Source: Henckelia pumila (lineage: Eukaryota; Streptophyta; Magnoliopsida; Lamiales; Gesneriaceae). Taken from it: a stretch of DNA of 64,000 nucleotides. The position numbers and the translations under genes were made by a program. The stretch spans positions 3,162,001 to 3,226,000 of the forward strand of contig NC_133121.1 in NCBI RefSeq assembly GCF_033568475.1. The letters are read 5' to 3'. Below are positions 30,747 through 64,000 of this stretch, in pieces (the stretch's first letter is position 1; every line of letters begins with the position of its first letter). The notes under the pieces are model-generated. The model ran no database searches. It was given only the letters and a program-made list of their open reading frames with translations, and was not told where the DNA came from.

Positions 30747-31630
30747 ATGGAAAACTCTCCTACACTTGCAGATAACCCGTCGCCTTCCGACCCGGCTAAT
30801 GCTCAACACCATGTAGAAGGAATGCTACGTGATCACGCGGGTGATAGCGATCAAGAATTCACCTGTGAAATCTGCATCGAGCCAACTTTAGTTCCCGATA
30901 AAAGATTCGAGAACGGCGACAAATGCGCCCACCCCTTCTGCACCGACTGTGTGATCAAGTACATCCGCGTGAAGCTCGAGGATGACAATGCCGGACGCAT
31001 CAAATGCCCGGCTCTGAACTGCGATCACACGCTGGACCCCCTCGCTTGCGCCACGCTCGTCGGCCCCTCCCTTTTCACGCGCTGGTGCGACGTGCTATGC
31101 GAAGCTGCGATTTCGGGTGTGGATAAATGCTACTGCCCGTATAGAAACTGCAACCTGGTGATCTTGGACGAGTGTGGCGAGGATCCGAGGAAGTCGAGGT
31201 GTCCGAATTGCAAGAGGTGGTTCTGTTTCAGGTGTAAAACGGGTTGGCACGCGGGGTTTCGGTGTGAAGACATGGGTGAAGTGAGGGATGCGAACGACCT
31301 GGCTTTCGGAGGGCTGGTGGAGCGGATGGGGTGGAGAAGGTGCCCTTCTTGTAGGCATTTCGTCGAACGGCTCGGAGGCTGTAAATCAGTGCGGTGCAGG
31401 TTAGTACATTTATCGACTCAAATTTGAATTTTGGCAAGTATTTAGTACTAAATTTGACACAATGTTCCGAATGTAGATGCGGGATGGATTTCTGCTACAC
31501 ATGCGGACAACAATGTTGTCCTTGCAGGAATGGACCATTCTACGATGGTGAATCCACTATTTATGCGATTGTTTGTCTTTATTATGGAATTTTCGCCATT
31601 TGTTTATTTATTTTATGGCTGAAGCTGTAA
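30747..31630 (+). CDS. RBR-type E3 ubiquitin ligase with C-terminal membrane anchor (RBR1)
   Basis: Exon 1 is 30747-31399 and exon 2 is 31477-31630, joined by a phase-2 intron of 77 bp, giving 268 residues. A proline-rich tail precedes RING1, which starts with CEIC (C40, C43) and includes CAHPFCTDC and CPALNC. The in-between-RING domain has CYCPYRNC and CPNCKRWFCFRCKTGWH. RING2 starts CPSC, and LGGC at about 209-212 holds the cysteine expected to form the thioester with ubiquitin, followed by CRCGMDFCYTCG. The last 25 residues (IYAIVCLYYGIFAICLFILWLKL) form a membrane segment, so the enzyme is tail-anchored. The layout resembles plant RSL1-like and animal RNF144-like ligases, which are shorter than the ARIADNE class. 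It is the left-most member of a cluster that continues at 48, 54, 57 and 61 kb. Confidence 0.92.
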
Positions 31631-35940: not shown

Positions 35941-38900
35941 ATTCTCTCCCCCCCCCCCCCCCCTTAATTTGAATTTCGTCCTCTAAATTAAAGTACTTAC
36001 CCGAACAACTCCGGGTAGCGAGTCCTCATGTCTGCCTCGGTCTCCCAAGTAGCTTCCTCCTTCGAGTGATTCAGCCACTGGACTCTGACCATCGGTATGA
36101 CCCGCGTCCTCAAACTGCGCTCCTCCTTAGCCAAGATCCGTATAGGCCTCTCCTCAAATGCTAACTCCGGTATCAACTGAAGAGGCTCAAAATCCAACAC
36201 ATGTGACGGGTTCGAGATGTATCTCCGAAGCATGGATACATGGAATACATTGTGCACTGCCGCTAGCCCTTGTGGTAGAGCTAAACGGTAGGCCTACGTG
36301 CCAACTCTCTCCAAGATCTCGAATGGCCCTATATATCTAGGGTTAAGCTTGCCTCTCCGGCCAAATCGCACTACTCCCTTCATAGGTGACACCTTCAGGA
36401 ATACGTGATCACCTACAGCGAACTCCAAATCTCATCGTCGAGTATCTGCATAACTCTTCTGACGACTCTGAGCAGTCCTCATGCGATCCCAAATCTGGGT
36501 CACAATATCAGCAGTCTGCTGCACTATCTCAGGACCCAATAGGATTCTCTCTCCAAACTCATCCCAATGAAGAGGAGATCTGCATCTCCTCCCATACAAA
36601 GCTGCATAAGGAGCCATACCTATAGACGCCTGAAAGCTATTGTTATAGGTAAACTCCACTAACGGCAATCTCGTCTCCCATGAGCCCTGAAAATCGATGA
36701 CACAGGCTCTCAGTAAATCCTCAAGAACCTGTATCACCCTCTCAGACTGATCATTTGTCTGGGGATGAAAAGATGTGCTGAACAGTAATCTGGTCCCCAA
36801 TGCTGTATGTAGACTCTTCCAAAACGCGGATGTGAATCTCGGATCTCTATCGGATATGATAGACACTGGTATGCCATGCAGTCTAACAATCTCCTTGATG
36901 TAAAGCTCTGCATACTGTGTCAAGGAGTAGGTAGTCCTCACTGGCAAGAAATGTGCTGACTTGGTGAGTCTATCCACGATCACCCAAATAGCCGTGCAAC
37001 CTCTGGCACTCCTCGGTAAACCAACTACAAAGTCCATTGTAATGTTCTCCCATTTCCATTCCGGAATATGAAGAGGTCTAAGAAGTCCTGCTGGACGCTG
37101 ATGCTCAGCCTTGACCTGCTGACAAGTCAAGCACTCTGACACAACTCTCTCGATGTCTCTCTTCATCCCGGGCCACAAATACAATAGCTGCAAATCTCGG
37201 TACATCTTCGTACTTTCGGGGTGAATGGAGAACGGAGATGTGTGAGCCTCTGCTAGAATCTCAACTCTCAACTGATCGACGTTCGATACCCACATCCTAC
37301 CACGGTACTGAACAATGCCATCCACAACTGTATACAGAAGACCACCCTTGGCCTCATATCTCTGCCTCAAACGCTGCAACTCTTCATCCGTAGACTGTCC
37401 ATCTCTGATCCGATCTCGTAGAATCGGCTGCACCGTCAACAATGACAAGCTCGGTGCATGACCACTCGAGTAAAACTCCAAATCAAACCTCTGAATCTCG
37501 CTCTGCAGTGGTAACTGCACTGTCAAACACGATACTACTGACGACTTTCGACTCAAAGCATCGGCCACTACATTAGCTTTACCTGGATGGTAGCTAATGT
37601 CACAGTCATAATCCTTAACCAACTCCAACCATCTCCGTTGCCTCATGTTTAACTCCTTCTGAGTGAAGAAGTACTTGAGGCTCTTATGATCAGTGAAAAT
37701 CTTGCACTTCTCGCCATACAGATAGTGTCTCCAGATTTTCAAAGCGAAGACCACTGCTGCTAACTCCAAGTCATGTGTCGGGTAGTTCTGCTCGTGAATC
37801 TTTAACTGCCTCGACGCATAAGCAATAACCTTACCACCCTGCATAAGTACTGCGCCTAAACCTAGCTTAGACGCGTCGGTGTACACCACTAACTCCTCGT
37901 GTGGTACTGCCATCGCCAAAACCGGTGCGGTAGTGAGTGATTCCTTCAGCTGATCGAAGCTCCTCTGACAGTCTGGACTCCAAACAAACTTCGCATTCTT
38001 CTTGGTTAAGGAAGTCAAGGGTACTGCAATAGAGAAAAAACCCTTGATGAACTTTCTATAGTATCCTGTCAAACCCAAGAAACTGCGAATCTCCAAAGCA
38101 TTCTTCGGAATACCCCATTTCTGCACTGCCTCAACCTTCGACTGATCCATTGCAATCTCATCTCTAGAAATAATGTGGCCAAGAAATGCCACCTGCTCAA
38201 GCCAAAACTCGCACTTGCTGAACTTGGCATACAAACGATGCTCCCTCAAAGTCTGCAAGGCTGTCTGTAGATGCTGCCTATGCTCCTCAACGCTCCTAGA
38301 GTAGATCAAGATATCATCAATGAAGACTATGATGAACTGATCAAGATACGGCTGAAATACCCGGTTCATGAGATCCATGAAAACCGCTGGAGCATTGGTC
38401 ATCCCAAATGGAATCACTAAGAACTCGTAATGCCCATAACGTGTCCGAAAAGCAGTCTTGGACACGTCTGCATCTCTAACTCGCAGCTGATGATAACCAG
38501 ATCGCAGATCGATCTTGGAGAACACTGAAGCTCCCCGCAACTGATCAAATAAGTCCTCTATCCTCGGCAGTGGGTACTTATTCTTCACCGTGACTCTGTT
38601 GAGCTCTCGATAATCGATGCACAGTCTCATACTGCCATCCTTCTTCTTCACAAATAACACTGGAGCTCCCCATGGAGAAAAGCTAGGACGAACAAAGCCT
38701 TTCTCTAATAACTCCTGAATCTGCTCCTTCAACTCTTTCATCTCGATAGGAGCAAGTCTGTACGGTACCTTTAAGATAGACACAGTGTCTGGCAATAAGT
38801 CGATACTGAACTCCACCTCTCTCATTGGTGGAATCCCTGCAACATCCTCCGGAAAGACGTCCGGAAAATCACGAACCACCTCTATCGCTGATAATGATCT

Positions 38901-40809
38901 ACTAGCTGGTTCTGAGGCCGTGACAATACTCGCTAGGAAACCTCGGCAACCCCGTTTCAACAGCTTCCTCGCCTGAATAAGAGATATCACCTGAAGAATA
39001 TCACTGCTCTGAGATGCATGAAAAGTAAACGGGTCGCCTCCCGACGGTTTCACTGACACTGTCCTCCGACGAAAATCAATCGAAGCTCCATTGACTGTCA
39101 ACCAGTCCATACCCAATATCAAATCAAATCCGCTCAACGGCAAAACCACTGCATCTGCGCGAATGGAGTGCCCTTGTAGCTCCAACTCCAGCTCTCGAAT
39201 GACACTAGAGGTAGAAATAATCTGTCCTGACGGCATAGTGACATCATAACCACTGTCGGCAATCTCAGGTGTGATGCCTATCCGTCTGATAAACTCTAGG
39301 GAGATAAACGAATGCGTAGCCCCTGAATCTAGCAATGCAAACGTGGAGTTGCCTCCAACTAGAATTCTCCCTGCACGCAGAAGAATCCCAACAACTTCAT
39401 ACCACTACTAAACTTTTCCCCCAAAGATGAGTCACTAATAACCCTTAATTCTAGTCACAAGTAAAACATGCTTCCTATTCTAACATGCAGATAGGAAATC
39501 CCAAATATCAAATTATTCCACAAAGAGAAATCAAAATTCTTAACCAAAGAAATAAATCATAAAATACTAGGTGTAAGATATACCGGTGATCAAGGAGGTA
39601 TTTGGGTCTGCCTCCTCAGCTGCATCACGAACACTCTCCCTGTAGTGTTCTTCTTCCTCGGGCAATTGGCCATCTGGTGCCCTGGCTCCTTACAATGAAA
39701 ACAGACGCCCGCTCCTAGAAGACATGGTCCTGGATGCATCTTCTGGTACTTCGGGCAAGTAGGATATCCTCCAGCATTAGGGGCCCCGCCCCTAGACTGC
39801 TGTCTCTGCTGCTGTGGCTTCTGCTGGTTCGGGCCCTTAGACGGCCCAGTATACTGCTTCTTCGTAGGAGGCTGCGAAGATGGTCGCTGATATCCAGACT
39901 GAAACTGCCTCTTACCCTGCTGCTCCCTGTGGATCTCTCTCCTACCATCCTCCGAACGCAAGGCTCTACTGACTGCCGTCTCATAAGTAAGGACGTCCGA
40001 CATACGAACGTCATGCTTGATCTCTGCCCTGAGTCCCTCGATAAACTGTCTCATCTTCTCAGGTGCACTGTTAGCAATCAATGGCACCAAGTGACAGCCC
40101 CTCTCGAACTGACAGATGTACTCCACAACTTTCTTGTCTCCTTGCCGGAGACTCATGAAATCTCGAATCATCCTACTGCGCACGTCTTCAGTGAAATACT
40201 TGGAGAAAAACATTCTCCGAAAATCTGCCCATAGCATAGTAGTCAGATTCACTCCCCGTGATGTACTCTCCCACCATAAGTCTGCATCACCCTTCAGCTT
40301 GTACACTGCGCATCTCACCTTGTCCGCATCAGTCAACCCCATGTAAGCAAATATGCTCTCCAAAGAACGGATCCACCCCTCAGCAATGAGTGGATCTGTG
40401 GCACCTGCGAACTCCTTAGGTCCCTTCTTTTGGAACCTCTCCGCCACGTCCTCATCGTGAGACAGTCTCGGACGTGCTGCCTGCTGCTCCAACAGAGCAG
40501 TAATCCCGGCCATCATGTTTGCATTGGCTTGCTCCAATGCGGAAAGCGGATTCTGCGAAGGTGGAGGTGGAGTTCCCCCGCGTCTGTTAACTAGTCTCGG
40601 AGGCATTCTGCACCACCACATATTTCTTTACGTAAATCGACATGCATAACTAAGTACTTAAAGATTTTCTGCTAACATAAATGCTTAAGTCTTAAACATG
40701 ATACTACTAAATCATACTAAAAGCAATTAAAACTTACAGACCGGTAGCGTGGATTTCTGAGCTCGCATAGCAGTGATGACCCCTCCAAGAACGCGTCTCT
40801 GATACCAAT

Positions 40810-46974: not shown

Positions 46975-47105
46975 AAGTATTGTCCGCTTAACCAAGCATC
47001 GAGTCTTTCACGAGACGTCGAAATATTAAGATGTTAGGATTTATTTCATCCGTGATATATATAATCGAGTCGGGGGATGTCCATGTGAAGATAAATAAGC
47101 TGCAA

Positions 47106-47169
<64 letters not shown>

Positions 47170-47176
47170 ATATATA

Positions 47177-47330
47177 TAGAGTTCTTTTATTGTGCCCAAC
47201 TCTATATGCCCAACTCCATGCCCACCATGTACAATATGTGATAAGTCAACTCATCAATTGTGTTGGTCAACTCACATATTGTACATGGTGGGCATGGAGT
47301 TGGGCATATGAGTTGGGCACCATAAAAGAA

Positions 47331-47335
<5 letters not shown>
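47177..47335. mobile_element. Foldback MITE in (TA)n, first copy
   Basis: The arms gagttcttttat.gtgcccaactc and gttgggcaccataaaagaactc are nearly perfect inverted repeats, continuing through catgcccaccatgtacaatatgtga and its complement. The spacer is under 40 bases. Position inside (TA)n recalls the micron class of MITEs, which insert into TA repeats. Confidence 0.8.
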
Positions 47336-47365
<30 letters not shown>

Positions 47366-47370
<5 letters not shown>

Positions 47371-47519
47371 TTCTTTTATGGTGCCCAACTCTATATGCCC
47401 AACTCCATGCCCATCATGTACAATATGTGATAAGTCAACTCATCAATTGTGTTGGTCAACTCACATATTGTACATGGTGGGCATGGAGTTGAGCATATGA
47501 GTTGGGCACCATAAAAGAA

Positions 47520-47524
<5 letters not shown>
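47366..47524. mobile_element. Foldback MITE in (TA)n, second copy
   Basis: It is almost identical to the first copy; differences include cccatcatg for cccaccatg and gttgagcat for gttgggcat. The pair, with the TA run between, looks like a tandem duplication rather than two insertions. Confidence 0.8.
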
Positions 47525-47563
<39 letters not shown>

Positions 47564-47958
47564 GTGGTCGAAAATGGAGGTAAGATAAATTATGATTCAC
47601 CGCGTACGTCAATTTCACCCGGGGTGGATTTTGGCAATTCATTAGGTCCCCACACGTTTCCACTAAAGAGAATTAAGATGTTATTATTCCGAGTAAATTT
47701 ATCTTTTGGCCTCGAAAATATGCACGTACCTACATAGAGTGCATGGCCATGTCAATAAATCAAAATTTTAATTACATCACTTCCCTAAGTTGTAAAGACT
47801 CCCATTCGAAGTTGGGGATTCTCGAAGGGGTAATATAATTAATGCAGCTGCTACATAATGGCAAGACGTGTCCAAATGCAATTGTTATTGGTTCATACCT
47901 CAGAACGGCAACCGGTTAATAAAGTGATCTCCGGCCTCTTCATTCCAAGGAAAAAGCT

Positions 47959-47965
47959 TATAAAT
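47959..47965 (+). promoter_or_regulatory. TATA box of small gene A
   Basis: TATAAAT within agcttataaatcc lies 66 bases before the ATG. The same agcttataaatcc occurs before small gene B. RBR1 has only a weak ttatacat in the equivalent place. Confidence 0.6.
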
Positions 47966-48024
47966 CCTCAACAAATGAAGCTTATTTAGCACACACACAG
48001 GCAATAAAAAAAAAAAAAAAAACT

Positions 48025-48477
48025 ATGGCAAACTCTCATACGCTTCCAATCACAGCCACAGCTCCTCCCGAACCCTCCAGCGCTCCAGGCCAGGGTGAGT
48101 ATGTACATATCGAGCCAAATTTGCATTTTCGCAAGTATTCGTGTTAATTTTCACAATAATATTGTTCGTATGTAGGTCCCGGACCCCCGGCCAGCGCTCC
48201 ACCACTCCAGGGTGAGTACGTACATGCATGTCGAGTACTCAATTTTCGCAAGTATTTTGTATTAATTATTTTCACGATGTTCGAATATGTAGGTGCGGGA
48301 GGAGTAGTTTCTGGCTCTGCTACACAAGTTGGCTACCAGGCTAGTACTAGGACTGTCGTAGCATCCCACGATCGTACCTGTGATTGTGCAATATTTATTT
48401 GCATTTGCTTGTTACTTTCTGCCCTTTGTATTTTCATTTATTTGCTGCACCAAGATCTCAAAATTCGGGGATGCTAA
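48025..48477 (+). CDS. Small membrane protein derived from an RBR ligase (small gene A)
   Basis: Three exons, 48025-48094, 48176-48211 and 48293-48477, joined by two phase-1 introns, give 96 residues. The N terminus, MANSHTLPITATAPPEPSS, aligns with the start of RBR1 (MENSPTLADNPSPSDP). A Gly/Pro-rich linker (GPGPPASAPPLQG) follows. The third exon descends from the RBR RING2 exon (tgcggg...ttctg...tgctacac), but is read in another frame as AGGVVSGSATQVGYQAS, so no zinc ligands remain. The end, CAIFICICLLLSALCIFIYLL, is a membrane segment matching the RBR tail in the ancestral frame. Both introns are copies of the single RBR intron (shared words: gagta.gtacat, cgcaagtatt, ttttcac, gaat.tgtag). 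It may anchor in the same membrane as the RBR ligases and influence them, but this is inference. A non-functional remnant is possible; the matching open gene B argues against that. Confidence 0.7.
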
Positions 48478-48991
48478 ATTATCGTTTCGTTAATTTATAA
48501 TATGAATGTACTTTGGCCAGATGATCATGGATTAATGGTTTATGTTTCTAAAAATAGAAATAAATGTTTGTTGATAGTCTCTATCCAATGATGCTCAAGT
48601 TGATATATGACGACGTTAATTAACATAAGAACTAGCTAGCAACGTTCCTACTAAATTAATATAAATTAATCATTTTTCAATTACATATATTTTTTTAGCG
48701 TTTGGGACATGCATGGGAGTCCAGGAAGACAATACATATTTCAAGAACGCAGATATATATCTATGGCGTTTTTAGTAGATTAGAATGAGATTAATAAATT
48801 ATTATAATGAGTTTGCTAATTAAATGGAAATAAACGTATTTGATTAAATCACTTTGACGACTCAAACAAGAACTGGAATAAACTCTATTTTTTGGGGAAG
48901 ATTTGAAGATTAAAAGTTATTAATAGAACTGTTATGTACGTATATAGCCAGTAGCTTGTGAATTGGAGATTCATTGATTTATTGTTGATTA

Positions 48992-49333
48992 CAGGGGCGG
49001 ATCCAGGATTTAAAATTTGGGGGGGCCGCATATGAAATGATAGCAACGTGCGGCAAGATCGAAGCTACCAATTTCCAACTAGTACTATTAGTTTCGCTCT
49101 TTTGACTTGTGTTTTATGCATTATTTTCTTAAAAATTTTTGTTTGAGTGTGAGATAGAAAGAAAAAAAATTGAAAAAAAAAATTTGTTCAAGGGCCACAA
49201 TGATCTTGTCATATTAAATGGTTTATTAAAATATATATACATACTTTATAAAAAAATTCATATATAATATTAAAAAATTTTAAAATTTTCGGGGAGGCCG
49301 TGGCCCCTGGGTCCCCATGTAGATCTGCCCCTG
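48992..49333. mobile_element. Non-autonomous hAT element, 342 bp
   Basis: The ends are CAGGGGCGGATC and the inverted GATCTGCCCCTG, flanked by gttgatta (48984-48991) and cttgatta (49334-49341), an 8-bp duplication with one change. Unit B (near 55540) continues ttgttgagataat without it. The ends resemble those of the 742-bp element at 46233, so both may be moved by one transposase. Confidence 0.8.
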
Positions 49334-49509
49334 CTTGATTATACAATTTATTATATCTACACTATATTATCTTAATCCCAAATACTAATAAACAAAAAAT
49401 AAAAGATTCATACTATATATAGCTTGCAATCTGATGCCCGGAGCTCTAATGTAAATTCGGATCGATTTTGAGAAGCTAATGCATGCAATCTTTTTTTAAA
49501 AAAATAAAA

Positions 49510-49579
<70 letters not shown>

Positions 49580-51238
49580 TATGTGATATCTTTACATTAA
49601 AAAACTCCCACGAGAAGATGATGTAATAATAATATATGTGATATCTTTACATTAAAAAACTCCCACGAGAAGAAGATGTCATGAAAAAGTGCAGCATATG
49701 TTTTAGTAGATTAGAATGAGATTAATAAGTTAGTAAGAGTTGATGGAACTGGATTATAAACTATTTTTTGGGGGAAGATTTTGAATATTAGGTGGTGTTG
49801 ATACAGCTGTTATGTAGCTTGTCAATTGGATATTCATTTATTTATTGTTGAGATAATCTTATCTCATCTAGGTGATTATACAATTTATTTATTATATCGA
49901 TATTATCTTATCTTAATCCCAAATAACTAATAAACAAAAAAAATAAAAGAATCTTATACTAAACATGCATTTTTAAAAATTGTTATATATTACCACATAG
50001 AAAACCGTGGGAAACAATATTACACGTGGCCGTTACCTTCCACCTGTAAAATATAATAATTTGTATGCATTGATATTTGATCTTGGTGTATTAATTTTTC
50101 ACTTTGTCAAAAAGTTTTAGGCCCTATATATATCACATGCCGTATTCAATGTTTTGCATGTCTTGAATATGTTTTCAAGTTTCAAGTGTGAGTAGCCAAA
50201 GTCAAGGCTAATTAATGCATGAAATGCTTGACCTAAATTATTGATCACATATTCACATTTGTATTTTATTGTGTTTTGTAAGTCATTGCCTAGATAAAAG
50301 AAGGTGAGAGATGTGAAGAAGAATAAGAAAGAAAAATACAATTCATTTCTCCAATTCTTTCGTTGTGATGCATGTAGACATATACATTTTTTGTTTTAAA
50401 TAATTTGTGTAAACAATTTAAATTTGAGAAATGTTTTTGAAAATAATTTTTATTTTATGGTGATATTATTGTTTAAAATTCAAAAATATAAATAAAGATC
50501 AAAATAAAATTTATGAGGATAAAATTGGGTGGATTGCATTTTTACCCACTGTATTATCACTTAAGAACATATACCCCATATGTAATATATATTGTCTTAT
50601 TAACCTTTGTGTTTTTAAATTAGGTGCATATTAGTCCCTATGGTGGTGCTTGTTTTCTCACGCGCATGAATTGGAGATTTTAATACCAAATATTTGAAAT
50701 ATTATATTTTTTTAGGATTGGAGAAATCCAAAGTAAAAGGAAAACTAGAAAACCAAGATTTTTTAGGGGAAAAATCAATTTCCCCTTTTAATGAATCTGG
50801 AGTTTTCTGTTATTTAACTTTGGTTCATATGAAAGTTTTTTTTTTCGAATAAGAACATAAAAATATTAATAAAGGATAATTTGAAAATGGGAAACGGCTG
50901 CCAACTTTTAAAAGAATGAGAATTTTAACTTTTTCTACTAAAATAAGGATTTGGTTTTTTGAATTATATATAGAAGTATATCCTAGTATAAAAAGAAAAG
51001 AGAGCATACGAGACAAAATAAACATAATTCTATGTTTTTATGTGTTGAAAATAGTGTTAAGAATGTCCAAGATCCATGAAAAAGAAGAAAAAAAACTACG
51101 AGATTAGTTTTTCTAAAAATAAATTTGTTTTGTCAATTTTTTAATTCATAATTACTATATATTCATATGTTCGATTTTTAATTTATCAAATTATTATATA
51201 ATCACTTACGTTGTAGTTCAAAATAAAAATTTTGAACA

Positions 51239-51330
51239 ATATATGTTATGATGAAATTCATTGTATATATATGTGTGTTAAAAATAAATATATTTTCGGT
51301 TACAAAGAATTTATAGAGAAATGCATGGTT
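51239..51330 (+). pseudogene. Trace of an RBR2-like promoter without its gene
   Basis: The stretch tatgatgaaattcatt.tatatatatgtgtgtt...tcggtt.c.aagaat matches 57060-57125, just before the RBR2 start codon. Here it is followed by unrelated sequence. Its place, about 700 bases beyond the end of unit A, suggests that unit A once also carried an RBR gene, as unit B does. Confidence 0.55.
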
Positions 51331-51583
51331 GGATTGCACTGATACTACAGTGATTATCTATCTATCCAGTGATTAAATGGTTACATTTTTTATGGATGAA
51401 AAATTAAAATAGACTTCATTTTTTACTTTTTATTCTATAAATAAATAAACAAACAATAATAATATTCTTCTTTCTCTTAAATTTGTTTGAAATAAAAAAA
51501 TTAAAAAAAGCTTATTATAGTTGCTACTTTTATTATTATTATTTTTTTATCTTAAAAGTATATGTACGATTTCTAAGTGATAT

Positions 51584-51690
51584 CACTACAACAAAAAAAG
51601 CCGATTTGCGACACTCAAAATCATTGCAAAACCGTCACCAATATGAAATTAATGATGGTTCTTTATGACGTTATTTGCAATAAATAGTAA
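51584..51690. mobile_element. Possible CACTA transposon end
   Basis: CACTACAACAAAAAAAG is the typical end of CACTA elements, and the following ccgatttgcgacactcaaaatc resembles their sub-terminal repeats. I found no matching opposite end, so this is a fragment at most. Confidence 0.4.
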
Positions 51691-51889
51691 TGTAAAATAT
51701 TGAAAATGTACAATTTTTTTTCAACCCCAAATTTTTATATAATTAGCACATGTATCCCTTCATATGAGTGATTGTTGCGCACAAGTCCCTCATGCGACTG
51801 ACAAACATTTTGATTTTTTGCACCAAATACCACTATAAAATATTAAAAATACATGTTTTACCACTTGAAAGTATAATTTTTAAATCTAT

Positions 51890-52660
51890 TCAACTCATAA
51901 TACACAATTTTTATTAAGATCTAATTATAAAATATTTACCAAACATTTTCGTTTTATTAATTTTTATTTTTATTTCAAATTTATTATTCTTAATTAATTT
52001 GTTTCTAAAAAAATATTATTACTTTATCTTGCTATCATAATTTATTAAATTCACTTCGTGTTTCCAACTTCTCGATTAAACATGCATATTCATAAGCAAG
52101 GAATTAAATACCTAAAATTAACAAAATATTAAACCAAAATGATAAGTTCATGCATATTACTTTTCGTGAAAATGCATTACACAATTTTCAGTAAATAATA
52201 ATACACAATTTTTATTAAGATTCAATTATAAAATATTTATCAAAAATTTCATTTTACTAATTTTTCATTTTATTTAAATTTATTATTCTTTATTAATTTT
52301 TTTCTAAAAAATATTATTATTTTATCTTGCTATCATTATTTTATTAAACTTTCTTCGTGCTTCTAACTTCTCTATTAAACATGCATTCATAAATAAAGAT
52401 TTAAATAACTAAAATTACCAAAATGATAAGTTCATGCATATTACTTTTAAATTTAGGACTATATATTTTTGAACCAAAATATAAATTTTTCGAGAAGATG
52501 CATTGCAAAATTTGTAGTAAATAATAACACACAATTTTTTATTAATATCCAATTATAAAATATTTATCAAAATTTTTCATTTTACTAATTATATTTTATT
52601 TAAATTTATTATTCTTAATTAATTTGTTTCTAAAAAATATTTTTACTTTATCTTGCTATC
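51890..52660. repeat. Tandem array of three AT-rich 300-bp units
   Basis: Each unit runs from acacaatttttattaa through ttattattct.aattaattt.tttctaaaaaa.atta and tttatcttgctatcat to catgcat.tcataa. The units start near 51901, 52202 and 52530. They differ from one another at many places. Confidence 0.7.
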
Positions 52661-52836
52661 ATTATTTAAACTTACTTTGTTTTCCAATTTCTCCATTAAA
52701 AATGCATTCATAAAACAAAGATTTAAATATCTAAAAGTTCCAAAATATTGAACCAAAATAATAAGTTCGTGCATATTACTTTTCGATTTTGAACCATATA
52801 GTTTGAACCAAAATCTAAATTTTTCGAGCATTCCCC

Positions 52837-52890
<54 letters not shown>

Positions 52891-53221
52891 CATCATCATC
52901 ATCATCATTATTATGTAAACCATATTATAGCTTAGAGTATGGATGAAAGGCTTTACGTGAACAAGAATATGTGATCGCGTACCGTGACTAGCAAAGTATT
53001 ATACGCTTAACCAAACATCAAGTCTTTCTCGAAAGATCGAAACATTTTGATGTTAGACTTCATTTCATCCGTGATATAATCGAGTACGATCGGGGGATGT
53101 CCATGTCAAGAAAAATAAGCAATGACGATATATATATATAAGTATATAACACAATAGTGATAGCATCGAACAAGCTGGTTTGATCTGTACGTGAAGCCTT
53201 AGAATTATATATTATACAAAC

Positions 53222-53450
53222 TAAGGCTGGTATACCGTACCGAAATACCGGAATTTTGGCATATCGTACCAAAATGTTTTCGATATACAGACATTTTTTC
53301 GGTGTACCGAATTTTTTTTTGATATCTATACGGTATCAATATGAATTTTTTTTGTACCAAAGTTTCAAAATTTTACTATCGGTATCAGTATGAATTTTTT
53401 TCATACCAATATTTGTAGTAAGGTATACCGAAAAACCATCCCTATTACAA
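53222..53450. repeat. Repeat rich in ACCGAAATACCG words
   Basis: Recurring ggtataccg, taccgaaata and tatcggtatcagtatga words fill this block, which has no counterpart at the matching place in unit A. It is likely an old element, but its borders are unclear. Confidence 0.4.
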
Positions 53451-53478
53451 ACAAATAGAGAAAAACAAAGTGTGTATT

Positions 53479-53792
53479 TTTAAAAGGGAAAATGAGTTTT
53501 TTAGTCCAGTAACTTTACTCCTTTTGAGTTTTGATCCAATAACTTTTTCGATGTAAGTTTTGGTACACTAACTTTGCATTTTCAGTGTTTTTTGGTCCAA
53601 CTGAATACGTGTCAGCTTCTGATTGGTCCACATTATCATTTTGGACCAATCAGAAGTTGACACGTATGCAGTTGAACCAAAAAACATTGAAAATGCAAAG
53701 TTAGTGTACCAAAACCCACATCCAAAAAGTTAATGAACAAAAACCAAAATATTGACAAGTTAATGGACCAAAAAATTTATTTTCCCTTTTTA
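53479..53792. mobile_element. Foldback MITE, about 310 bp
   Basis: The left arm (aaaagggaaaatgagttttttagtcca...tgattggtcca) and right arm (tggaccaatcagaa...tggaccaaaaaatttattttccctttt) are inverted repeats along almost the whole length, meeting at tccacattatcattttgga. No open frame of note. It lies in unit B only. Confidence 0.8.
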
Positions 53793-54354
53793 AAATATGT
53801 ATTTTTTTGTTAAAAGCAAAAAAATTCGATTTTTTTAAAAGTAAATTTTAACATTGGAAGGATTTAGCTTACAACCACTGATAATTCTGCTCATGGTCTC
53901 AACTCTCATGCCACATTATTGCTTGGATAGATATTCATCGGTAAAGTAATAAAGGTGGTCGAAAATGGAGGTAATATTTAAGCTCACCGTGTCAATTTCA
54001 ACTGGTGGATTTTGGTAATTCATTAGGATTTAGGCATGCATGAGTCCCCACAAAATGTATGAGGACCATGTCCAATAAAGGGTATATGATTATTATTCCC
54101 GAGTGAATTTTACGCGGTTTAAAATCTTTTAGGCCTCCAAAACACAATGCGTCGTGGGCTTCACGTCCAATATATATATAAATGGTAAAAGTTATCAATC
54201 CGAGTAAATTAATTTCACGCGGTTTAGTAAAGTGTTGGCCTCGAAAATGTGCACGTATGTACATAGAGTGCATGGCCATGGCAATAACTCAAAATTTGAC
54301 GTCACTTTTCTAATTTGGAAATACTCCCATTTGAAGTTTGGGATTCTTGAAGAA

Positions 54355-54376
54355 GGGGGGGGGGGGGGGGGGGGGG
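54355..54376 (+). repeat. Run of 22 G in the promoter of small gene B
   Basis: An uninterrupted G tract replaces the short gggg of the paralogous promoters (aaggggtaatata in unit A near 47826, aaggggtag before RBR1). It lies about 180 bases before the ATG. The exact length may reflect sequencing or assembly. Confidence 0.9.
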
Positions 54377-54476
54377 ATATAATTGTATTAATGCACTTGC
54401 TATTAATGTTTCATACCTCAGAACGGCAAAGTGCTGGTCAACAAAGTCTTCTCTCTTCATCCCACGGAAAGCAGCT

Positions 54477-54483
54477 TATAAAT
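54477..54483 (+). promoter_or_regulatory. TATA box of small gene B
   Basis: TATAAAT within agcttataaatcc, as in small gene A, lies 75-81 bases before the ATG. Confidence 0.6.
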
Positions 54484-54557
54484 CCCAACACATGAAAGCT
54501 TAATGCTAACACACAGAGGCAAAAATAAAGAGAAAAAAAAAAAAACAAAACAAAACT

Positions 54558-55032
54558 ATGACAAACACTCATACGCTTGAAGCCACGGCTCCTCTCGAAC
54601 CCTCCGGTGCTCCAGGCCAGGGTGAGTATGTACATATCGACTCGAATTTGCATTTTCGCAAGTATTCCTATTAATTTTCACGATTTTGGAATGTAGATGG
54701 TGGAGGGGTAAAAATTATGGCAGAATCTCATGCGGTAACAATCACATGTCCTCCTCCCGGACCCCCCGCCGGCGCTCCACCCCAAGGTGAGCACATGCAT
54801 GTCGAGTCAAATTTTGCTAAACATTTTAGCAAGTATTCGTATTAATTAATTTTCACAATGTTGGAATGTAGTAATTGCGGGAGAGGTCTCTGCTACACGA
54901 GTTGGCTACAAGGCTAGTACTTGGATTGTCGTAGCATTCGAAGCTCATCCCATTGCTCGTGCAATTCTTTTCGTTGGCTTCTTTGTTTTTTTCATTTGGA
55001 TGTTAATTTATTGGCTGAACCAATCTCTCTAA
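54558..55032 (+). CDS. Small membrane protein derived from an RBR ligase (small gene B)
   Basis: Three exons, 54558-54621, 54697-54786 and 54872-55032, with two phase-1 introns as in gene A, give 104 residues. Exon 1 encodes MTNTHTLEATAPLEPSGAPGQ. Exon 2 is longer than in A and shows its origin: it starts like the RING2 exon (atggtggagggg), then carries a second copy of exon 1 including its ATG (MAESHAVTITCPPPGPPAGAPPQ). The gene therefore contains an internal tandem duplication of exon 1 plus intron. Exon 3 begins tgcgggagaggtctctgctacac, close to the RBR2 exon (tgtgggagagatttctgctacaac), but reads AGEVSATRVGYKAS in a shifted frame. The tail RAILFVGFFVFFIWMLIYWLN is a membrane segment, back in the ancestral frame (IYWLN against ILWLK). 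RBR2 follows 2.1 kb downstream on the same strand. Function unknown; a membrane partner or decoy of the ligases is conceivable. Confidence 0.7.
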
Positions 55033-57132
55033 ACTCAGTAGGGACTCTAAAATTATCGTTTCGGTTAATTATATATATAAATGTTTGGCCAGATATGATC
55101 ATGAATTCATTGTTTTTGTCTCCGACGGCCATATTTATTTTATTATGAAAAAAATAGAAATAAATGTTTGTTCATAGTCTCTATCCAACAAGGAATCTAA
55201 CATAAGAATTGAACTAGCAACCTAATAAATAAATCATTTTTCAATTAAATATTTTGTAGCGTTTGGGACATGGAAGTCCAGAAAGACAATATTTCAAGAG
55301 GGCAGATATATATCTATATAGCTTTTTCAGTATATTAGAAATTTATAATGAGATTAATAAATTATTTAGAGTTTGCTAATTAATGGAAATAAATTTATTT
55401 GATTAAATCGCTTTGACGACTCGAACAAGAACAGGATCGAATTAATAAACAATTTTTTGGGGAATTAAAGAGTTTGAAGATTAATTAGAAGGTGTTGATA
55501 GAACTGTTATGTAGCTGGTCAATTGGAGATTCATTGATTTATTGTTGAGATAATATGATCACGATATCTCTTATCTCATCTTGGTGATTATACGATTTAT
55601 TATTAATATATCTATACTATCTTATCTTAATCTCAAATAACTAATAAACAAAAAAAAAATAAAAAACTCTTATACTAAACATGCATTTTTAAAAATTGTT
55701 ATTACCATAAAGAAAACCATATTGGGAAACAATATTACACAATCGAGGCCGTAACCTTCCACCTTCCACCTGTAAAATTTAATGATTTGTATGCATTTGT
55801 CTTCTTGTATAATTAATTTGTTTACGTTGTGAAAAAGCTTAGGCTATGTATCACATGCCATATTCAATGTTTTTTCTTTAATTTGTGTTTAAGTGTGAGT
55901 AGCCAATTAGGTCAAGGTTAAATATTAATGTATGAAATGCGTGATCCAAAATTTAAAATGATTGTAACTTGGATGCAGATGTGAGTTCATCGACACTCTT
56001 GTAATTCCAATATCTCGTTTCGCCACATGCTTTTGATTCAAAGTGTAGATCTTTCAATCTTCCTATTTAGGACTTTCATTATAATTCCCTGGAAAAATGG
56101 AACAATACACATTCTATATTTTCGTTATTTTTTGGGGTTTGTTATTGATTAAATTAAATTAAATATAATATCATGGTATATGTGTTTGTTTATTGTTCAA
56201 ATGCTAATTTTACATTGGCCGTTAATTTTTTTCCCAGTCGCTAACTAGTTAATTCCTACATTATTGGTTGGATGATATGCCAAGTAATTTTCGGGATAAA
56301 AAAAAAACTGGTTAATTCCATTGTATTGTAGAATCAAACCTGTTTTTAGTGTCCTCAAATTAGGGGTGTCAATTCGGTTGGGTTCGGGTCGGGTTGACGA
56401 AATTTTTTTAAAAAAATTTCTCAACCTGAATCCGAACCAATCGGGTTAACGGGTTGTGTTGAGTTTTGACACCCCTACCCCAAATAGCATGATTCTCCCT
56501 TACTTTTTTTTTTTTTTTTTTTAATTTGATACCGTTTACTCCCTACTACACCCATTCAGTGGGTGTTAATGCTGACTGCTGAGCTCCTCATAAAAATAAT
56601 TTAATTTTTTTTTAAGGATTGCAGACCGAATGTTTTGTAAAATTTTACTTAAATAATTACATACAATAATAACATAATTAAAATATTCTACAAGATAAAT
56701 TTTTTTATCATATACTAGTGTCTCTGTGTACGTGATAGCCGTGATGCACACATACACATTACATTTTTTGTTTAAAAAATTTAAATTTGAGAAATGTTTT
56801 TGATAAATAATTTATTTTATGGCGATATTATTGTTTGAAATTCAGAAATATAAATAAATATCAACACAAAATTTATCAGGATAAAATTTGAAAGGTGAAA
56901 AAATAAGATCTAATAAGTTATATTGTTGGAATATTGTCTTTGCATATATTTTTGTAGTGATCGAATGATAATCTAAAAATTTAATGATATATTAGATAGA
57001 TAAAGATAAGTAAAGACTTTTATAAATTTAAAATAATTTTGAAGGTAAACAAAAATATTTTAGTATGATTAAATTCATTATATATATATGTGTGTTCTTC
57101 GGTTCCGAAGAATATAGAAACAGAGTTGAGCC
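55033..57132. other. Between small gene B and RBR2
   Basis: No gene is visible. The sequence follows unit A to about 56890. A hAT-type MITE at 56361 is listed separately. The last 80 bases are the RBR2 promoter, whose trace also lies at 51239. A clear TATA box is not seen; tatatatatatgtg near 57078 is the best candidate. Confidence 0.5.
56361..56477. mobile_element. hAT-type MITE, 117 bp
   Basis: Perfect 12-bp inverted ends (TAGGGGTGTCAA and TTGACACCCCTA) are flanked by cctcaaat (56353-56360) and ccccaaat (56478-56485), an 8-bp duplication with one change. The interior has ggttcgggtcgggttg and aatcgggttaacgggttg. Confidence 0.85.
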
Positions 57133-58298
57133 ATGGAAAACCCTACTAAAGGGGCCAATAATCGGCCGCCTTCCACTACAGCTCACCATGCACAAGTGCA
57201 ACACCAGCAGGAGGATGAATTCACATGCGAAATATGTACCGAGACGACGTCGCTTCCCAACAAATTCAGAAATGGCGACGTTTGCGCGCACCCCTACTGC
57301 ACCGACTGCGTGATCAAGTACATCGGCGTCAAGCTCGGGGACGAAAACACGGGACACATCAAATGCCCGGCTCCCGACTGCGATCACACGCTCGACCCCC
57401 TCGCTTGCGCCCCCATCGTCGGCCGTCCCCTATTCTTACGATGGTGTGACGTACTCTGCGAGTCGGCGATTAAGGGTTGGGAAAGGTGCTATTGCCCGCA
57501 TAGAGATTGCAATGTTACGATTTTAAACGAGTGTGGTTGGAAATTGAGAGTCTCCAAGTGCCCGCAGTGCAAGAGGTGGTTTTGCTTTCGGTGTAAAACG
57601 GTTTGGCACACGATGATTTCATGTGAAGAGAAAAGGGAAGCTGCTGAGCCAGGTTTGAGAGAGCTGGCGGCGCGGAAGCATTGGCAGAGGTGTCCCTCTT
57701 GCGGGCAATACGTCGAACGGTCGTGGGGCTGTCATGTTGTGAGATGCAGGTAAGTCCTATCGCTTGGCATATTTGCACGTATGTATTTTGGTTAGTACGT
57801 TATTAGGTTTATTTACAGGGTTAATTAATTAATTTCCTCCTATACCTTTTACTATCCACCCAAATTAGGGATAACAATTTTCCGGGATGGTGACGGGTAT
57901 AATTCAGGGGCGGGGATGGGACGGCAAACCCGTTCCCGCCCCATTGCCATCCCTAACCCAAATGAATGGAATGAAATTGAAATTGTATCTTTAATAAGAT
58001 ATTTGGGTATAATATGAATATCACGGAAATGGGAATGGGAATAAAAACTGTTTTTGGTTTAGCAAACTTGAATGAGCTAGCGAGATAAGGAATTAATACA
58101 TAATCGATTTGAAACTGGTGTACGTTTGAATGCAGATGTGGGAGAGATTTCTGCTACAACTGTGGAAGGCCAATTTATCAACATTCTTGTACTTGTGGAG
58201 GAAGCCCACGTGAGATTATAGATCTGTTATTTATTTTGTTTCTAGTTTTAGCTTTGATAATTTTGATCCCATTTGGGGCGCTTTATATGTTATCTTAA
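57133..58298 (+). CDS. RBR-type E3 ubiquitin ligase with C-terminal membrane anchor (RBR2)
   Basis: Exon 1 is 57133-57749 and exon 2 is 58136-58298, with a phase-2 intron at the same place as in RBR1, giving 259 residues. RING1 runs from CEIC through CAHPYCTDC and CPAPDC. The in-between-RING part has CYCPHRDC and CPQCKRWFCFRCKTVWH. The conserved LRELAARKHWQRCPSC leads into RING2, where SWGC holds the expected catalytic cysteine (about C200), followed by CRCGRDFCYNCG. The last 25 residues (LLFILFLVLALIILIPFGALYML) form a membrane anchor. It is close to RBR1 in order and spacing of all zinc ligands, though the N-terminal tail differs. The intron is longer (386 bp) because it holds a 90-bp hAT MITE and other DNA. 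It lies just behind duplication unit B. Confidence 0.92.
57866..57955. mobile_element. hAT-type MITE in the RBR2 intron, 90 bp
   Basis: The ends TAGGGATAACAAT and ATTGCCATCCCTA are inverted repeats (11 of 13). A perfect acccaaat lies on each side (57858-57865 and 57956-57963). The interior is GC-rich (caggggcggggatgggacgg). It explains part of the intron's extra length relative to RBR1. Confidence 0.88.
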
Positions 58299-61309: not shown

Positions 61310-61764
61310 ATGGGAAACAGCAATGCTCGTGGCCATAATCCACCCGTACCTCGCCCTGCACAAGAACTGAAACTTCGCCGCGAAGATGAAGTTCAAGAAT
61401 TCACCTGCGAAATCTGCATCGAGCCCATGTCGAACCCCGCATGTATTGTTAAATGTGGACCTTCAGATCTATCATGGATAATATCTGTAAAGGTAAGTTG
61501 AAATAAACCTGTACGTAATAGTCGTTCATTAACATAGAATTTCTCCTATATTGTTGGATTATTGTTAATGATTAAATCATAAAAATGCAGATGTGGCATC
61601 AGTTTCTGCTACAATTGTGGAAACCGAGTTCATCAACATTGGTGCCGTTGCAAACCTCCATCGGTGGGCGAGGCTTTGTTTGACTTTACTTTTGCGATTA
61701 TAGCTATAGCATTTGTTGTTGGTTGGGGTTGTTTATTATTTTGGTCGGCTGTTTGTTGTAAATA
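61310..61764 (+). pseudogene. Gutted RBR ligase remnant (RBR3)
   Basis: The start reads MGNSNARGHNPPVPRP and continues to EFTCEICIEPM, the first cysteine pair of RING1. Then the rest of RING1, the in-between domain and most of RING2 are missing; the sequence passes into ACIVKCGPSDLSWIISVK and a GTAAGT donor at 61493. The second exon (from 61591, after tgcag) reads, in the family frame, RCGISFCYNCGNRVHQHWCRC and a membrane tail (FAIIAIAFVVGWGCLLFW) ending at 61764. The exon 1 frame meets exon 2 in phase 0 rather than the family's phase 2, so normal splicing would give about 30 unrelated residues and a stop. I see no donor that restores the family frame. It is probably dead, though it may be transcribed. 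Confidence 0.75.
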
Positions 61765-62058
61765 ATTTTGACTTCTTTTGTTAACTTCGGTGATCTAGAA
61801 ATTTTCTGATTCGTTTTTTTTTTTTCCCATATCACATTGTGGGTTTAATTATGATTGAAAAAAAAAACATTTGATAATTTAGTATATTGAATATTAGGTA
61901 TGATAGTAATTAAACATGGATCATTTGCATTCCCGTCGAATGATACGATAAAATATCATTTCCGTCTTCCTCGTGATTTTCTACCATTTTCCTGTCATCC
62001 ACGATTTCCTAGCTAACTCTATTATTATTATTTTTTAAAATAATAATAAGAAGCCATG

Positions 62059-63303: not shown

Positions 63304-63786
63304 ATGGCTCCACGCTTCGTGCACCTCTTGTTGGCTGCTACACTCGTCGCGGCGTCGTTTTCTTGTATCCTCGCCGGCGGTGATGACATCCACGGGAGTG
63401 GCGACGACTTGCTGATCCGTCAAGTCGTCGATCTCGGCAACGACGGCGAGAAAGCGCCGCTCGACGCCGATAATCACTTCGAGCTCTTCAAGAGGAAGTT
63501 CGGAAAGACCTATGCAACGCAGGAGGAGCACGATCACAGGTTTTCCGTGTTTAAGGCTAATTTGCGCCGCGCGAGGCGCCATCAGAAGCTCGACCCTTCC
63601 GCCGAGCACGGCGTCACTGCGTTCTCGGATCTCACTCGCTCTGAGTTCCGACGTCAGTTACTCGGAGTGAATCGGAGACTTCGTCTCCCTGTTGACGCTC
63701 ACAAGGCTGAGATACTGCCGACGAACGACCTTCCGACTGATTTTGACTGGAGAGATCACGGTGCCGTCTCACCGGTTAAAAATCAG
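63304..63786 (+). CDS. RD19: RD19-like papain-type cysteine protease, first exon (gene runs past the window)
   Basis: Exon 1 encodes 161 residues and ends ...GAVSPVKNQ with a GTACTT donor at 63787. The next exon, which should bring the active-site cysteine (CGSCWSF), is not within the window. Residues 1-24 form a signal peptide (FVHLLLAATLVAASFSCILA). DDLLIRQVV and the I29 inhibitor prodomain follow (FELFKRKFGKTYATQEEHDHRFSVFKANLRRARRHQ, then GVTAFSDLTRSEFRR), with the ERFNAQ-type pattern of RD19/cathepsin F enzymes. The mature enzyme should begin near LPTDFDWRDHGAVSP. Proteases of this class act in the vacuole and are induced by drought, senescence or infection. The exon is GC-rich compared with its surroundings. 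Confidence 0.9.
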
Positions 63787-64000
63787 GTACTTGTCAAGTT
63801 TTTTGTTGAAATTGATGAACATGATGTTGAATACTTCAATTATTTGTTCAGCTGTGAGAATACATTTCTTCCTTGCCTATTCGACATGGGAGTATATGTT
63901 TTGGGGAACGATTTTGCAATTGTATTCACGCGAGCTTATTGGAAGGCAGTATCTATGTTTTCCGAATATAACTTTTTACAGCTTAGCTTGCTGTTGGTTA

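What the first reader, a model, noticed from the sequence alone, without database searches (positions are those of the whole stretch)
48025..55032. Two small membrane-protein genes built from a gutted RBR ubiquitin ligase, with the RING2 exon read in a new frame
Genes at 48025-48477 (96 aa) and 54558-55032 (104 aa) share promoter, N terminus, intron sequence and membrane tail with RBR1 at 30747 but lack all zinc domains. RBR genes use a phase-2 intron before the RING2 exon (AG|A TGC GGG); the small genes use phase 1 (G|GT GCG GGA). CGRDFCY therefore becomes AGEVSAT, and the ancestral frame returns at the membrane segment (ILWLK, IYWLN, IYLLH). Both copies stay open across three exons although they differ at many bases, which suggests they are kept. 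Seen: frames, phases, homology. Inferred: a membrane-anchored modifier or decoy of the RBR ligases.
Basis: partly seen in the sequence, partly recalled or inferred. Interest (0 to 1): 0.87.

Follow-up and report, generated by a model that had tools for sequence, protein, structure and literature searches.

The report
Tiny membrane genes from gutted ligase
In a plant genome, two neighbouring copies of a ubiquitin-ligase gene have lost their whole enzymatic part and seem to encode tiny membrane-anchored proteins whose reading frame has been kept while their amino acids changed unusually fast, a possible case of a new gene function in the making that still needs proof of expression.

Summary
S1 (48025-48477, 96 aa) and S2 (54558-55032, 104 aa) are tandem relatives of the RBR ligase gene at 30747. 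They lost about 590 nt of exon 1 and every recognisable zinc domain, use phase-1 introns (RBR1/RBR2 use phase 2), and return to the ancestral frame before the membrane segment, apparently through one extra base. Capped whole-genome searches found no third S-type gene (one 74-base fragment); no other plant genome was available.

Frame maintenance looks better than chance: the five exon gaps between S1 and S2 are multiples of 3 (13 of 47 in non-coding alignments), with no stops. But this is not ordinary purifying selection. In the DNA alignment exon 3 has 1 synonymous and 35 non-synonymous changes (omega 15.6, p 0.0003). A gap-independent core has 0 and 30 (1 of 20,000 null runs). Protein-driven alignments weaken exon 3 omega to 1.9-2.8 (p 0.06-0.18). 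The helix changed at 14 of 19 residues, staying hydrophobic or small.

Best reading: young tail-anchored proteins under diversifying selection. A decoy for RBR ligases is possible but unshown. Without transcripts, decaying pseudogenes remain the main rival.

The parts
48025..48094 (+). S1 exon 1 (MANSHTLPITATAPPEPSSAPGQ), donor G|GTGAGT, phase 1
   Evidence: aligned to S2
48176..48211 (+). S1 exon 2, short proline-rich exon, phase 1 both sides
48293..48477 (+). S1 exon 3: RING2 exon read in a shifted frame, then membrane helix (IFICICLLLSALCIFIYLL, Kyte-Doolittle 3.06), 9 residues after it
54558..54621 (+). S2 exon 1, phase 1
54697..54786 (+). S2 exon 2: repeat of exon 1 (ATGGCAGAATCTCATGCG...) preceded by about 20 nt; proline-rich, phase 1
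   Evidence: 54710-54859 matches S1 48018-48157, 73.4%; 54751-54871 matches 54589-54696, 73.6%
54872..55032 (+). S2 exon 3: shifted RING2 exon, then membrane helix (IARAILFVGFFVFFIWMLI, 2.51), 7 residues after it
47740..48024 (+). S1 promoter and 5' UTR, TATAAAT at 47959; homologous to RBR1 and S2 upstream DNA
54268..54557 (+). S2 promoter and 5' UTR, TATAAAT at 54477
30747..31630 (+). RBR1, open two-exon RBR ligase gene (268 aa) with C-terminal membrane helix; exons 30747-31399, 31477-31630; phase 2
57133..58298 (+). RBR2, second open RBR gene (259 aa) with C-terminal membrane helix; exons 57133-57749, 58136-58298; phase 2
61310..61765 (+). third gutted copy (RBR3): start of RING1 kept, then sequence also found at L008 9301-9378, then RING2 exon; visible donor is phase 0, so the exon is out of frame and stops early: probable pseudogene

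Best explanation
S1 and S2 are partial duplicates of an RBR gene like RBR1 that have become small protein-coding genes of a new kind. Read from the alignments: most of exon 1 was lost, so the N-terminal leader joins almost directly to the old splice-donor region in a new phase; the RING2 exon is read one base out of frame; an apparent one-base insertion brings the ancestral frame back before the membrane helix; the leader exon was duplicated to give exon 2; the whole unit was then duplicated to give S1 and S2. Inferred: both are transcribed from the inherited promoter and make proteins with a proline-rich cytosolic head and a C-terminal membrane anchor (tail-anchored layout). Since the S1/S2 split the frame and helix hydrophobicity were kept while amino-acid change was favoured, mostly in exon 3. 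The most likely mode of action is contact with changing membrane partners through the helix and the stretch before it. The partner is unknown; sister RBR ligases in the same membrane are one candidate.
For: Gene models and phases. Exon gaps 6, 51, 3, 9, 3 in an unsupervised DNA alignment, all multiples of 3 (that alignment sets the exon 2 acceptors 6 bases apart, and by exon lengths the 51 is 57), against 13 of 47 gaps in non-coding alignments made with other gap settings. No stop in 84 aligned codons (null P 0.17); the other two forward frames of exon 3 hold stops in both copies. 5 synonymous and 44 non-synonymous changes overall, omega 4.0, p 0.0014; exon 3 omega 15.6, p 0.0003. Core of 43 codons whose register is the same in the alignments tried: 0 of 30 synonymous, omega test p 0.0002, null mean 6.8, as low in 1 of 20,000 runs. 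None of 994 overlapping non-coding windows with at least 15 changes is as low as 1 in 36 (minimum 0.056). Other forward frames of exon 3 look neutral (10 of 33 and 9 of 32 synonymous). Membrane part diverged 0.286 against 0.125 in the adjacent 3' flank (Fisher p 0.0004) and 0.166 in all non-coding (p 0.007). Helix: 14 of 19 residues changed, none to a charged, strongly polar or Pro residue (null P 0.05; with no synonymous-only codon 0.004). Contrast: RBR1-RBR2 omega 0.40. TATA box, GTGAGT/GTGAGC donors, TGTAG acceptors, AATAAA in S1 and S2.
Against: Only two sequences; no RNA, no orthologue, no second species. With protein-driven alignments exon 3 omega falls to 2.8 (p 0.056) and 1.9 (p 0.18). 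The core was defined after seeing that omega depends on gap placement. Exons 1 and 2 alone show no departure from neutrality (omega 1.55, p 0.50). Coding DNA overall is not more conserved than flanks (0.194 against 0.166). One reverse frame of exon 3 is also poor in synonymous changes (3.5 of 33) though it holds stops. At least two related RBR copies elsewhere carry in-frame stops, so decay is common in this family.
Confidence: 0.55

Rival explanations
1. Decaying partial duplicates: S1 and S2 are pseudogenes or non-coding duplicates that happen to remain open because they are short.
For: No stops in the coding length is not rare under neutrality (P 0.17). Exons diverge as much as flanks. Another gutted copy in the array (61310-61765) is out of frame, and RBR-like copies at C3:35.60 Mb and C4:34.25 Mb carry stops.
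Against: The five exon gaps keep the frame; synonymous changes are far too few in this frame, though less so with protein-driven alignments; both copies keep splice sites and a hydrophobic helix.
Confidence: 0.28
2. MicroProtein-like decoy (a special case of the best explanation, and the first reader's idea): the small proteins share the membrane anchor position of RBR1/RBR2 and occupy membrane sites or pair with the ligases' helices, damping them.
For: Same promoter ancestry, same N-terminal leader and C-terminal anchor position as RBR1. Truncated paralogues acting on full-length relatives are discussed for plant receptor kinases (PMC7318236, passages). RSL1 and RFA6-9 ligases carry C-terminal membrane domains (PMC8268412, passages).
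Against: No ligase domain is left. The tail is only weakly similar to RBR1's (5 and 14 of 1000 shuffles reach it), S2's not to RBR2's (916 of 1000), and it is the fastest-changing part of the gene. Contact was not testable.
Confidence: 0.15
3. The apparent positive selection is an alignment or mosaic artefact: the membrane parts of S1 and S2 come partly from different RBR tails, by conversion, and the genes are otherwise under weak constraint. This may overlap with either coding or pseudogene readings.
For: Membrane-part differences are rich in transversions (19 of 24, against 137 of 241 in non-coding DNA), and omega depends on alignment. Divergence varies between segments.
Against: The core register is the same in the alignments tried and has no synonymous change. 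S1 and S2 tails match each other (0 of 1000 shuffles) far better than they match RBR1's (S1 against RBR2 not tested). Changes polarised by RBR1 fall on both lineages (9 and 12, 11 unresolved).
Confidence: 0.2

Closest known systems
RSL1/RFA-type (Plant II) RBR ubiquitin ligases with C-terminal membrane domain
   Same: Parent family: N-terminal leader, promoter, intron before RING2 and C-terminal helix position are shared with RBR1 here. RSL1 and RFA6-9 carry a C-terminal membrane domain (PMC8268412, passages). Tandem duplicates are known in Arabidopsis Plant II A RBRs (PMC2904391, passages).
   Different: S1 and S2 have no RING1, IBR or RING2; intron phase differs. That RBR1 itself belongs to Plant II/RSL1 was judged by layout, not by a tree.
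Young partial gene duplicates under positive selection (e.g. EXOV of Arabidopsis)
   Same: Partial copy of a slower parent, fast selection-driven protein change (PMC8824575, abstract and outline; review PMC3449122, passages).
   Different: Here the inside rather than one end is lost, one exon is read in another frame, and nothing is known of expression.
Pairs of compensatory frameshifts (pCFM)
   Same: A short stretch of an old coding exon is read in a new frame between two frame changes (PMC8935012, abstract and outline).
   Different: Here the first change is a deletion plus a change of splice phase, inside an otherwise gutted paralogue.
CYSTM/PCM and Bs5 small tail-anchored proteins
   Same: Similar size and layout: Bs5 has three exons, 92 residues, a C-terminal helix, and a two-residue deletion in the helix conditions disease resistance (PMC10030403, passages; PCM family seen only as a listing, PMC8049917).
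   Different: No CYSTM match by Pfam at E up to 1 (that the library holds a CYSTM model is recalled); no Cys block in the S2 helix; different origin.
MicroProteins
   Same: Short paralogue of a multidomain protein keeping part of it (concept: PMC7318236, passages).
   Different: What is kept is a leader and a fast-changing membrane anchor, not a known dimerisation domain; no interaction is known.

Membership tests
RBR ubiquitin ligase | RING1-IBR-RING2 zinc domains | tested here: not met
   Pfam finds none in S1 or S2; in RBR1 IBR 41.6 bits and zf-C3HC4 22.7 bits pass the cut-offs; in RBR2 IBR passes and zf-C3HC4 is just below (19.9 against 21)
RBR ubiquitin ligase | Descent from an RBR gene | tested here: met
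   Promoter, leader and introns homologous to RBR1; colinear three-way alignment; exon 3 alone is weak
RSL1/RFA6-9 class | C-terminal membrane helix | tested here: met
   Hydropathy 19-mers S1 3.06, S2 2.51, RBR1 2.53, RBR2 3.16, ending 4-9 residues before the C terminus; no dedicated predictor was available
Functional protein-coding gene | Reading frame kept by selection | tested here: inconclusive
   Five of five exon gaps in frame against 13 of 47 outside; exon 3 omega 15.6 p 0.0003, but 1.9-2.8 (p 0.06-0.18) with protein-driven alignments; two sequences only
Functional protein-coding gene | Spliced transcript and protein | not testable with these tools
   No RNA or protein data for this genome
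microProtein | Binds and interferes with its full-length relative | not testable with these tools
   No interaction data
CYSTM | CYSTM cysteine-rich membrane module | tested here: not met
   No such match in a Pfam scan at E up to 1 (presence of the model in the library is recalled)

The most novel reading that the evidence does not exclude
A ubiquitin-ligase gene array has thrown off anchor-only proteins: the enzyme was cut out, the catalytic RING2 exon re-read in a new frame, and the membrane anchor restored by a compensating base. These are now in an evolutionary race acting on the membrane helix, as changing decoys or partners of the sister ligases or of an outside agent that targets them.
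Probability: 0.17. Interest if true: 0.78.

Novelty: new variant of a known kind. Interest (0 to 1): 0.5.

Why it matters
Partial duplicates with broken frames are commonly written off as pseudogenes (a point made in PMC3449122, passages). Here the substitution pattern suggests that a gutted enzyme gene can turn quickly into a different small membrane protein, with a stretch of new sequence from an old exon. If transcripts and orthologues confirm it, the pair would be a compact case of gene birth by gutting plus frame compensation, and a testable candidate for membrane-level control of RBR ligases. Diversifying change concentrated in and next to a membrane helix would need an explanation.

Tried and rejected
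Rejected: that the RBR frame could still be used in S exon 3 (stops in both copies). Not found: a wider S family in this genome. DNA searches found S1 and S2 plus a 74-base piece resembling the S2 3' region on C1, and the S2 protein search returned four rows, all in S1 and S2. Those searches score only the best candidates (2, 3 and 3) and treat exons separately, so divergent copies could be missed. Rejected: CYSTM membership. Scanned 110 kb of flanking DNA (50 kb upstream, 60 kb downstream) by blastn for further array members: the one match was a 78-base hit to the foreign piece in RBR3, at L008 9301-9378 (a first attempt failed because the files were named otherwise). Considered and not done: structure prediction of S1/S2, since a single sequence without relatives would give a poor model. 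Papers: searches listed 15 of 21, 15 of 75, 6 of 6, 15 of 49, 10 of 149 and 6 of 6 papers; among those listed I saw no report of an anchor-only or gutted RBR gene. This covers only the open-licence library. Statements about splice consensus are recalled.
Full report
WHERE. The window is C2:3162001-3226000 of an 884.7 Mb genome in 133 contigs; the contigs C1-C4 are 183-234 Mb. It looks like a plant genome from its gene content (judgement). No other plant genome could be searched.

THE GENES. S1 has exons 48025-48094, 48176-48211 and 48293-48477 (96 aa); S2 has 54558-54621, 54697-54786 and 54872-55032 (104 aa). All four introns are phase 1. RBR1 (268 aa) and RBR2 (259 aa) each have two exons with a phase-2 intron before RING2. 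Pfam finds IBR above its cut-off in both RBRs and RING above its cut-off in RBR1 (just below in RBR2), and no zinc domain in S1 or S2. A third damaged copy at 61310-61765 keeps the start of RING1 and the RING2 exon, but its visible donor is phase 0 and the exon stops early; its middle resembles a piece about 10 kb downstream of the window. So three of the five RBR-derived units seen in the array are gutted.

ORIGIN. S1 shares a 252-column match of promoter and start-codon region with RBR1 (70.6%; 121 against a shuffle maximum of 30). S1 introns 1 and 2 and S2 intron 1 match the RBR1 intron beyond 300 shuffles. By eye, the S leader aligns with the first 65 or so bases of RBR1 exon 1; the next 590 or so of its 653 are gone. 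S2 exon 2 repeats exon 1 (54710-54859 against S1 48018-48157, 73.4%; 54589-54696 against 54751-54871, 73.6%). In the three-way alignment S reads the RING2 exon one base out of frame; an extra base in S restores the ancestral frame, so the end reads ILWLK in RBR1, IYWLN in S2 and IYLLH in S1. Exon 3 by itself matches RBR exons only weakly, and the tails match RBR1 weakly (14 and 5 of 1000 shuffles) and, for S2, RBR2 not at all (916 of 1000). The frame-return claim therefore rests on colinearity between a homologous intron and a homologous 3' flank (S2 3' region against RBR1: 54 against a shuffle maximum of 34).

COPY NUMBER. Whole-genome DNA searches with S1 and with the S2 region found these two copies and one 74-base fragment; these searches score only the best candidates. 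The S1/S2 duplication extends into flanks on both sides (46975-50239 against 52994-55953 in pieces), which gives a neutral yardstick: 241 substitutions in 1454 aligned non-coding sites (0.166), from 0.120 (intron 1) to 0.267 (intron 2, uncertain alignment).

IS THE FRAME KEPT? In the unsupervised DNA alignment, gaps inside exons are 6, 51, 3, 9 and 3 bases. That alignment sets the exon 2 acceptors 6 bases apart, so by exon lengths the 51 is 57; exon 3 of S2 also starts 3 bases earlier relative to S1. All keep the frame. Non-coding gaps are multiples of 3 in 13 of 47 cases (other gap settings), so five of five has a chance of about 0.002 (by hand from these counts). A 4-base gap lies after the S2 stop, within the last S1 codons, and was not counted. 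No stop arose in 84 aligned codons; with substitutions drawn from the non-coding spectrum this happens in 17% of runs.

WHAT KIND OF SELECTION? Counts by Nei-Gojobori: 5 synonymous, 44 non-synonymous; dN/dS 3.4, bootstrap 1.5-17. By maximum likelihood: all exons omega 4.0 (p 0.0014); exon 3 15.6 (p 0.0003); exons 1 and 2 1.55 (p 0.50). The null from non-coding spectra expects 8.2 synonymous of 36 in exon 3; 0 of 2000 runs were as low as 1. The other two forward frames of exon 3 give 10 of 33 and 9 of 32, as expected without selection; of the three reverse frames one is low (3.5 of 33) but holds stops. Of 994 overlapping windows in non-coding alignments, none is as low as 1 in 36. RBR1-RBR2 shows omega 0.40. 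Against this: if exon 3 is aligned as protein, omega falls to 2.8 (p 0.056) or 1.9 (p 0.18), at the cost of 38 or 44 substitutions instead of 36; for all exons it is then 2.2 (p 0.04) or 1.8 (p 0.10). The difference lies in the first codons and beside one gap. The 43-codon core, whose register is the same in the alignments tried, has 0 synonymous of 30 (p 0.0002; 1 of 20,000 null runs). The core was chosen after seeing the alignment effect. Codons with a single change only: 0 of 24 synonymous in exon 3.

THE HELIX. The last part of exon 3 (24 of 84 sites) diverges more than the adjoining 3' flank (55 of 441; p 0.0004) and than all non-coding sites (p 0.007). Over 19 helix codons 14 residues differ, yet none became charged, strongly polar or proline and none became a stop (null P 0.052; together with no synonymous-only codon 0.004). 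Changes polarised by RBR1 fall on both lineages (9 and 12, 11 unresolved). This is the pattern of a kept anchor with changing surface, on limited data.

FUNCTION. Hydropathy puts one helix 4-9 residues from the C terminus in S1, S2, RBR1 and RBR2, a tail-anchored layout; RSL1 and RFA6-9 ligases have a C-terminal membrane domain (PMC8268412, passages). I take the S proteins as proline-rich heads on membrane anchors whose contacts in the membrane plane change. Whether the partner is the sister ligase (microProtein-like) or something else is open. Small tail-anchored proteins matter in plant disease in the CYSTM/Bs5 case (PMC10030403, passages), but S1 and S2 show no CYSTM match.

VERDICT. Observation confirmed; 'kept' is supported but as change under selection, not conservation, and on two sequences only; decoy role unproven. 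Confidence 0.55 that these are real, fast-evolving genes; about 0.28 for decay. Interest 0.5.

Noticed in passing
61310-61765: Third gutted RBR copy: RING1 start, then a piece that resembles a sequence about 10 kb downstream of the window (L008 9301-9378), then a RING2-plus-helix exon open in the RBR frame but joined by a phase-0 donor.
   Followed up: partly
L018, L020 (C3:35.60 Mb, C4:34.25 Mb): Further RBR1-like copies (58-59% protein identity) with in-frame stops; the family leaves broken copies in this genome.
   Followed up: partly
   Followed up: no
2330-4068 and 8890-10684: Tandem pair of AAA-ATPase-like genes (by eye); the first is split over more reading frames than the second.
   Followed up: no
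36432-40621: Retrotransposon-like open frames on the minus strand (capsid-like and reverse transcriptase/integrase-like, by eye) between RBR1 and S1.
   Followed up: no
47180-47345 and 47365-47530: Two adjacent, very similar inverted-repeat elements (ends like GAGTTCTTTTATGGTGCCCAACTC, by eye) flanked by long AT runs, just upstream of S1.
   Followed up: no
63304-63788: Start of a papain-like cysteine protease gene at the window end (by eye).
   Followed up: no
C1:30083027-30083100 (L046): A 74-base match to the 3' region of S2; I recognised no S or RBR coding sequence in the three frames of the short locus that were read (open stretches of 60 codons or more only).
   Followed up: partly
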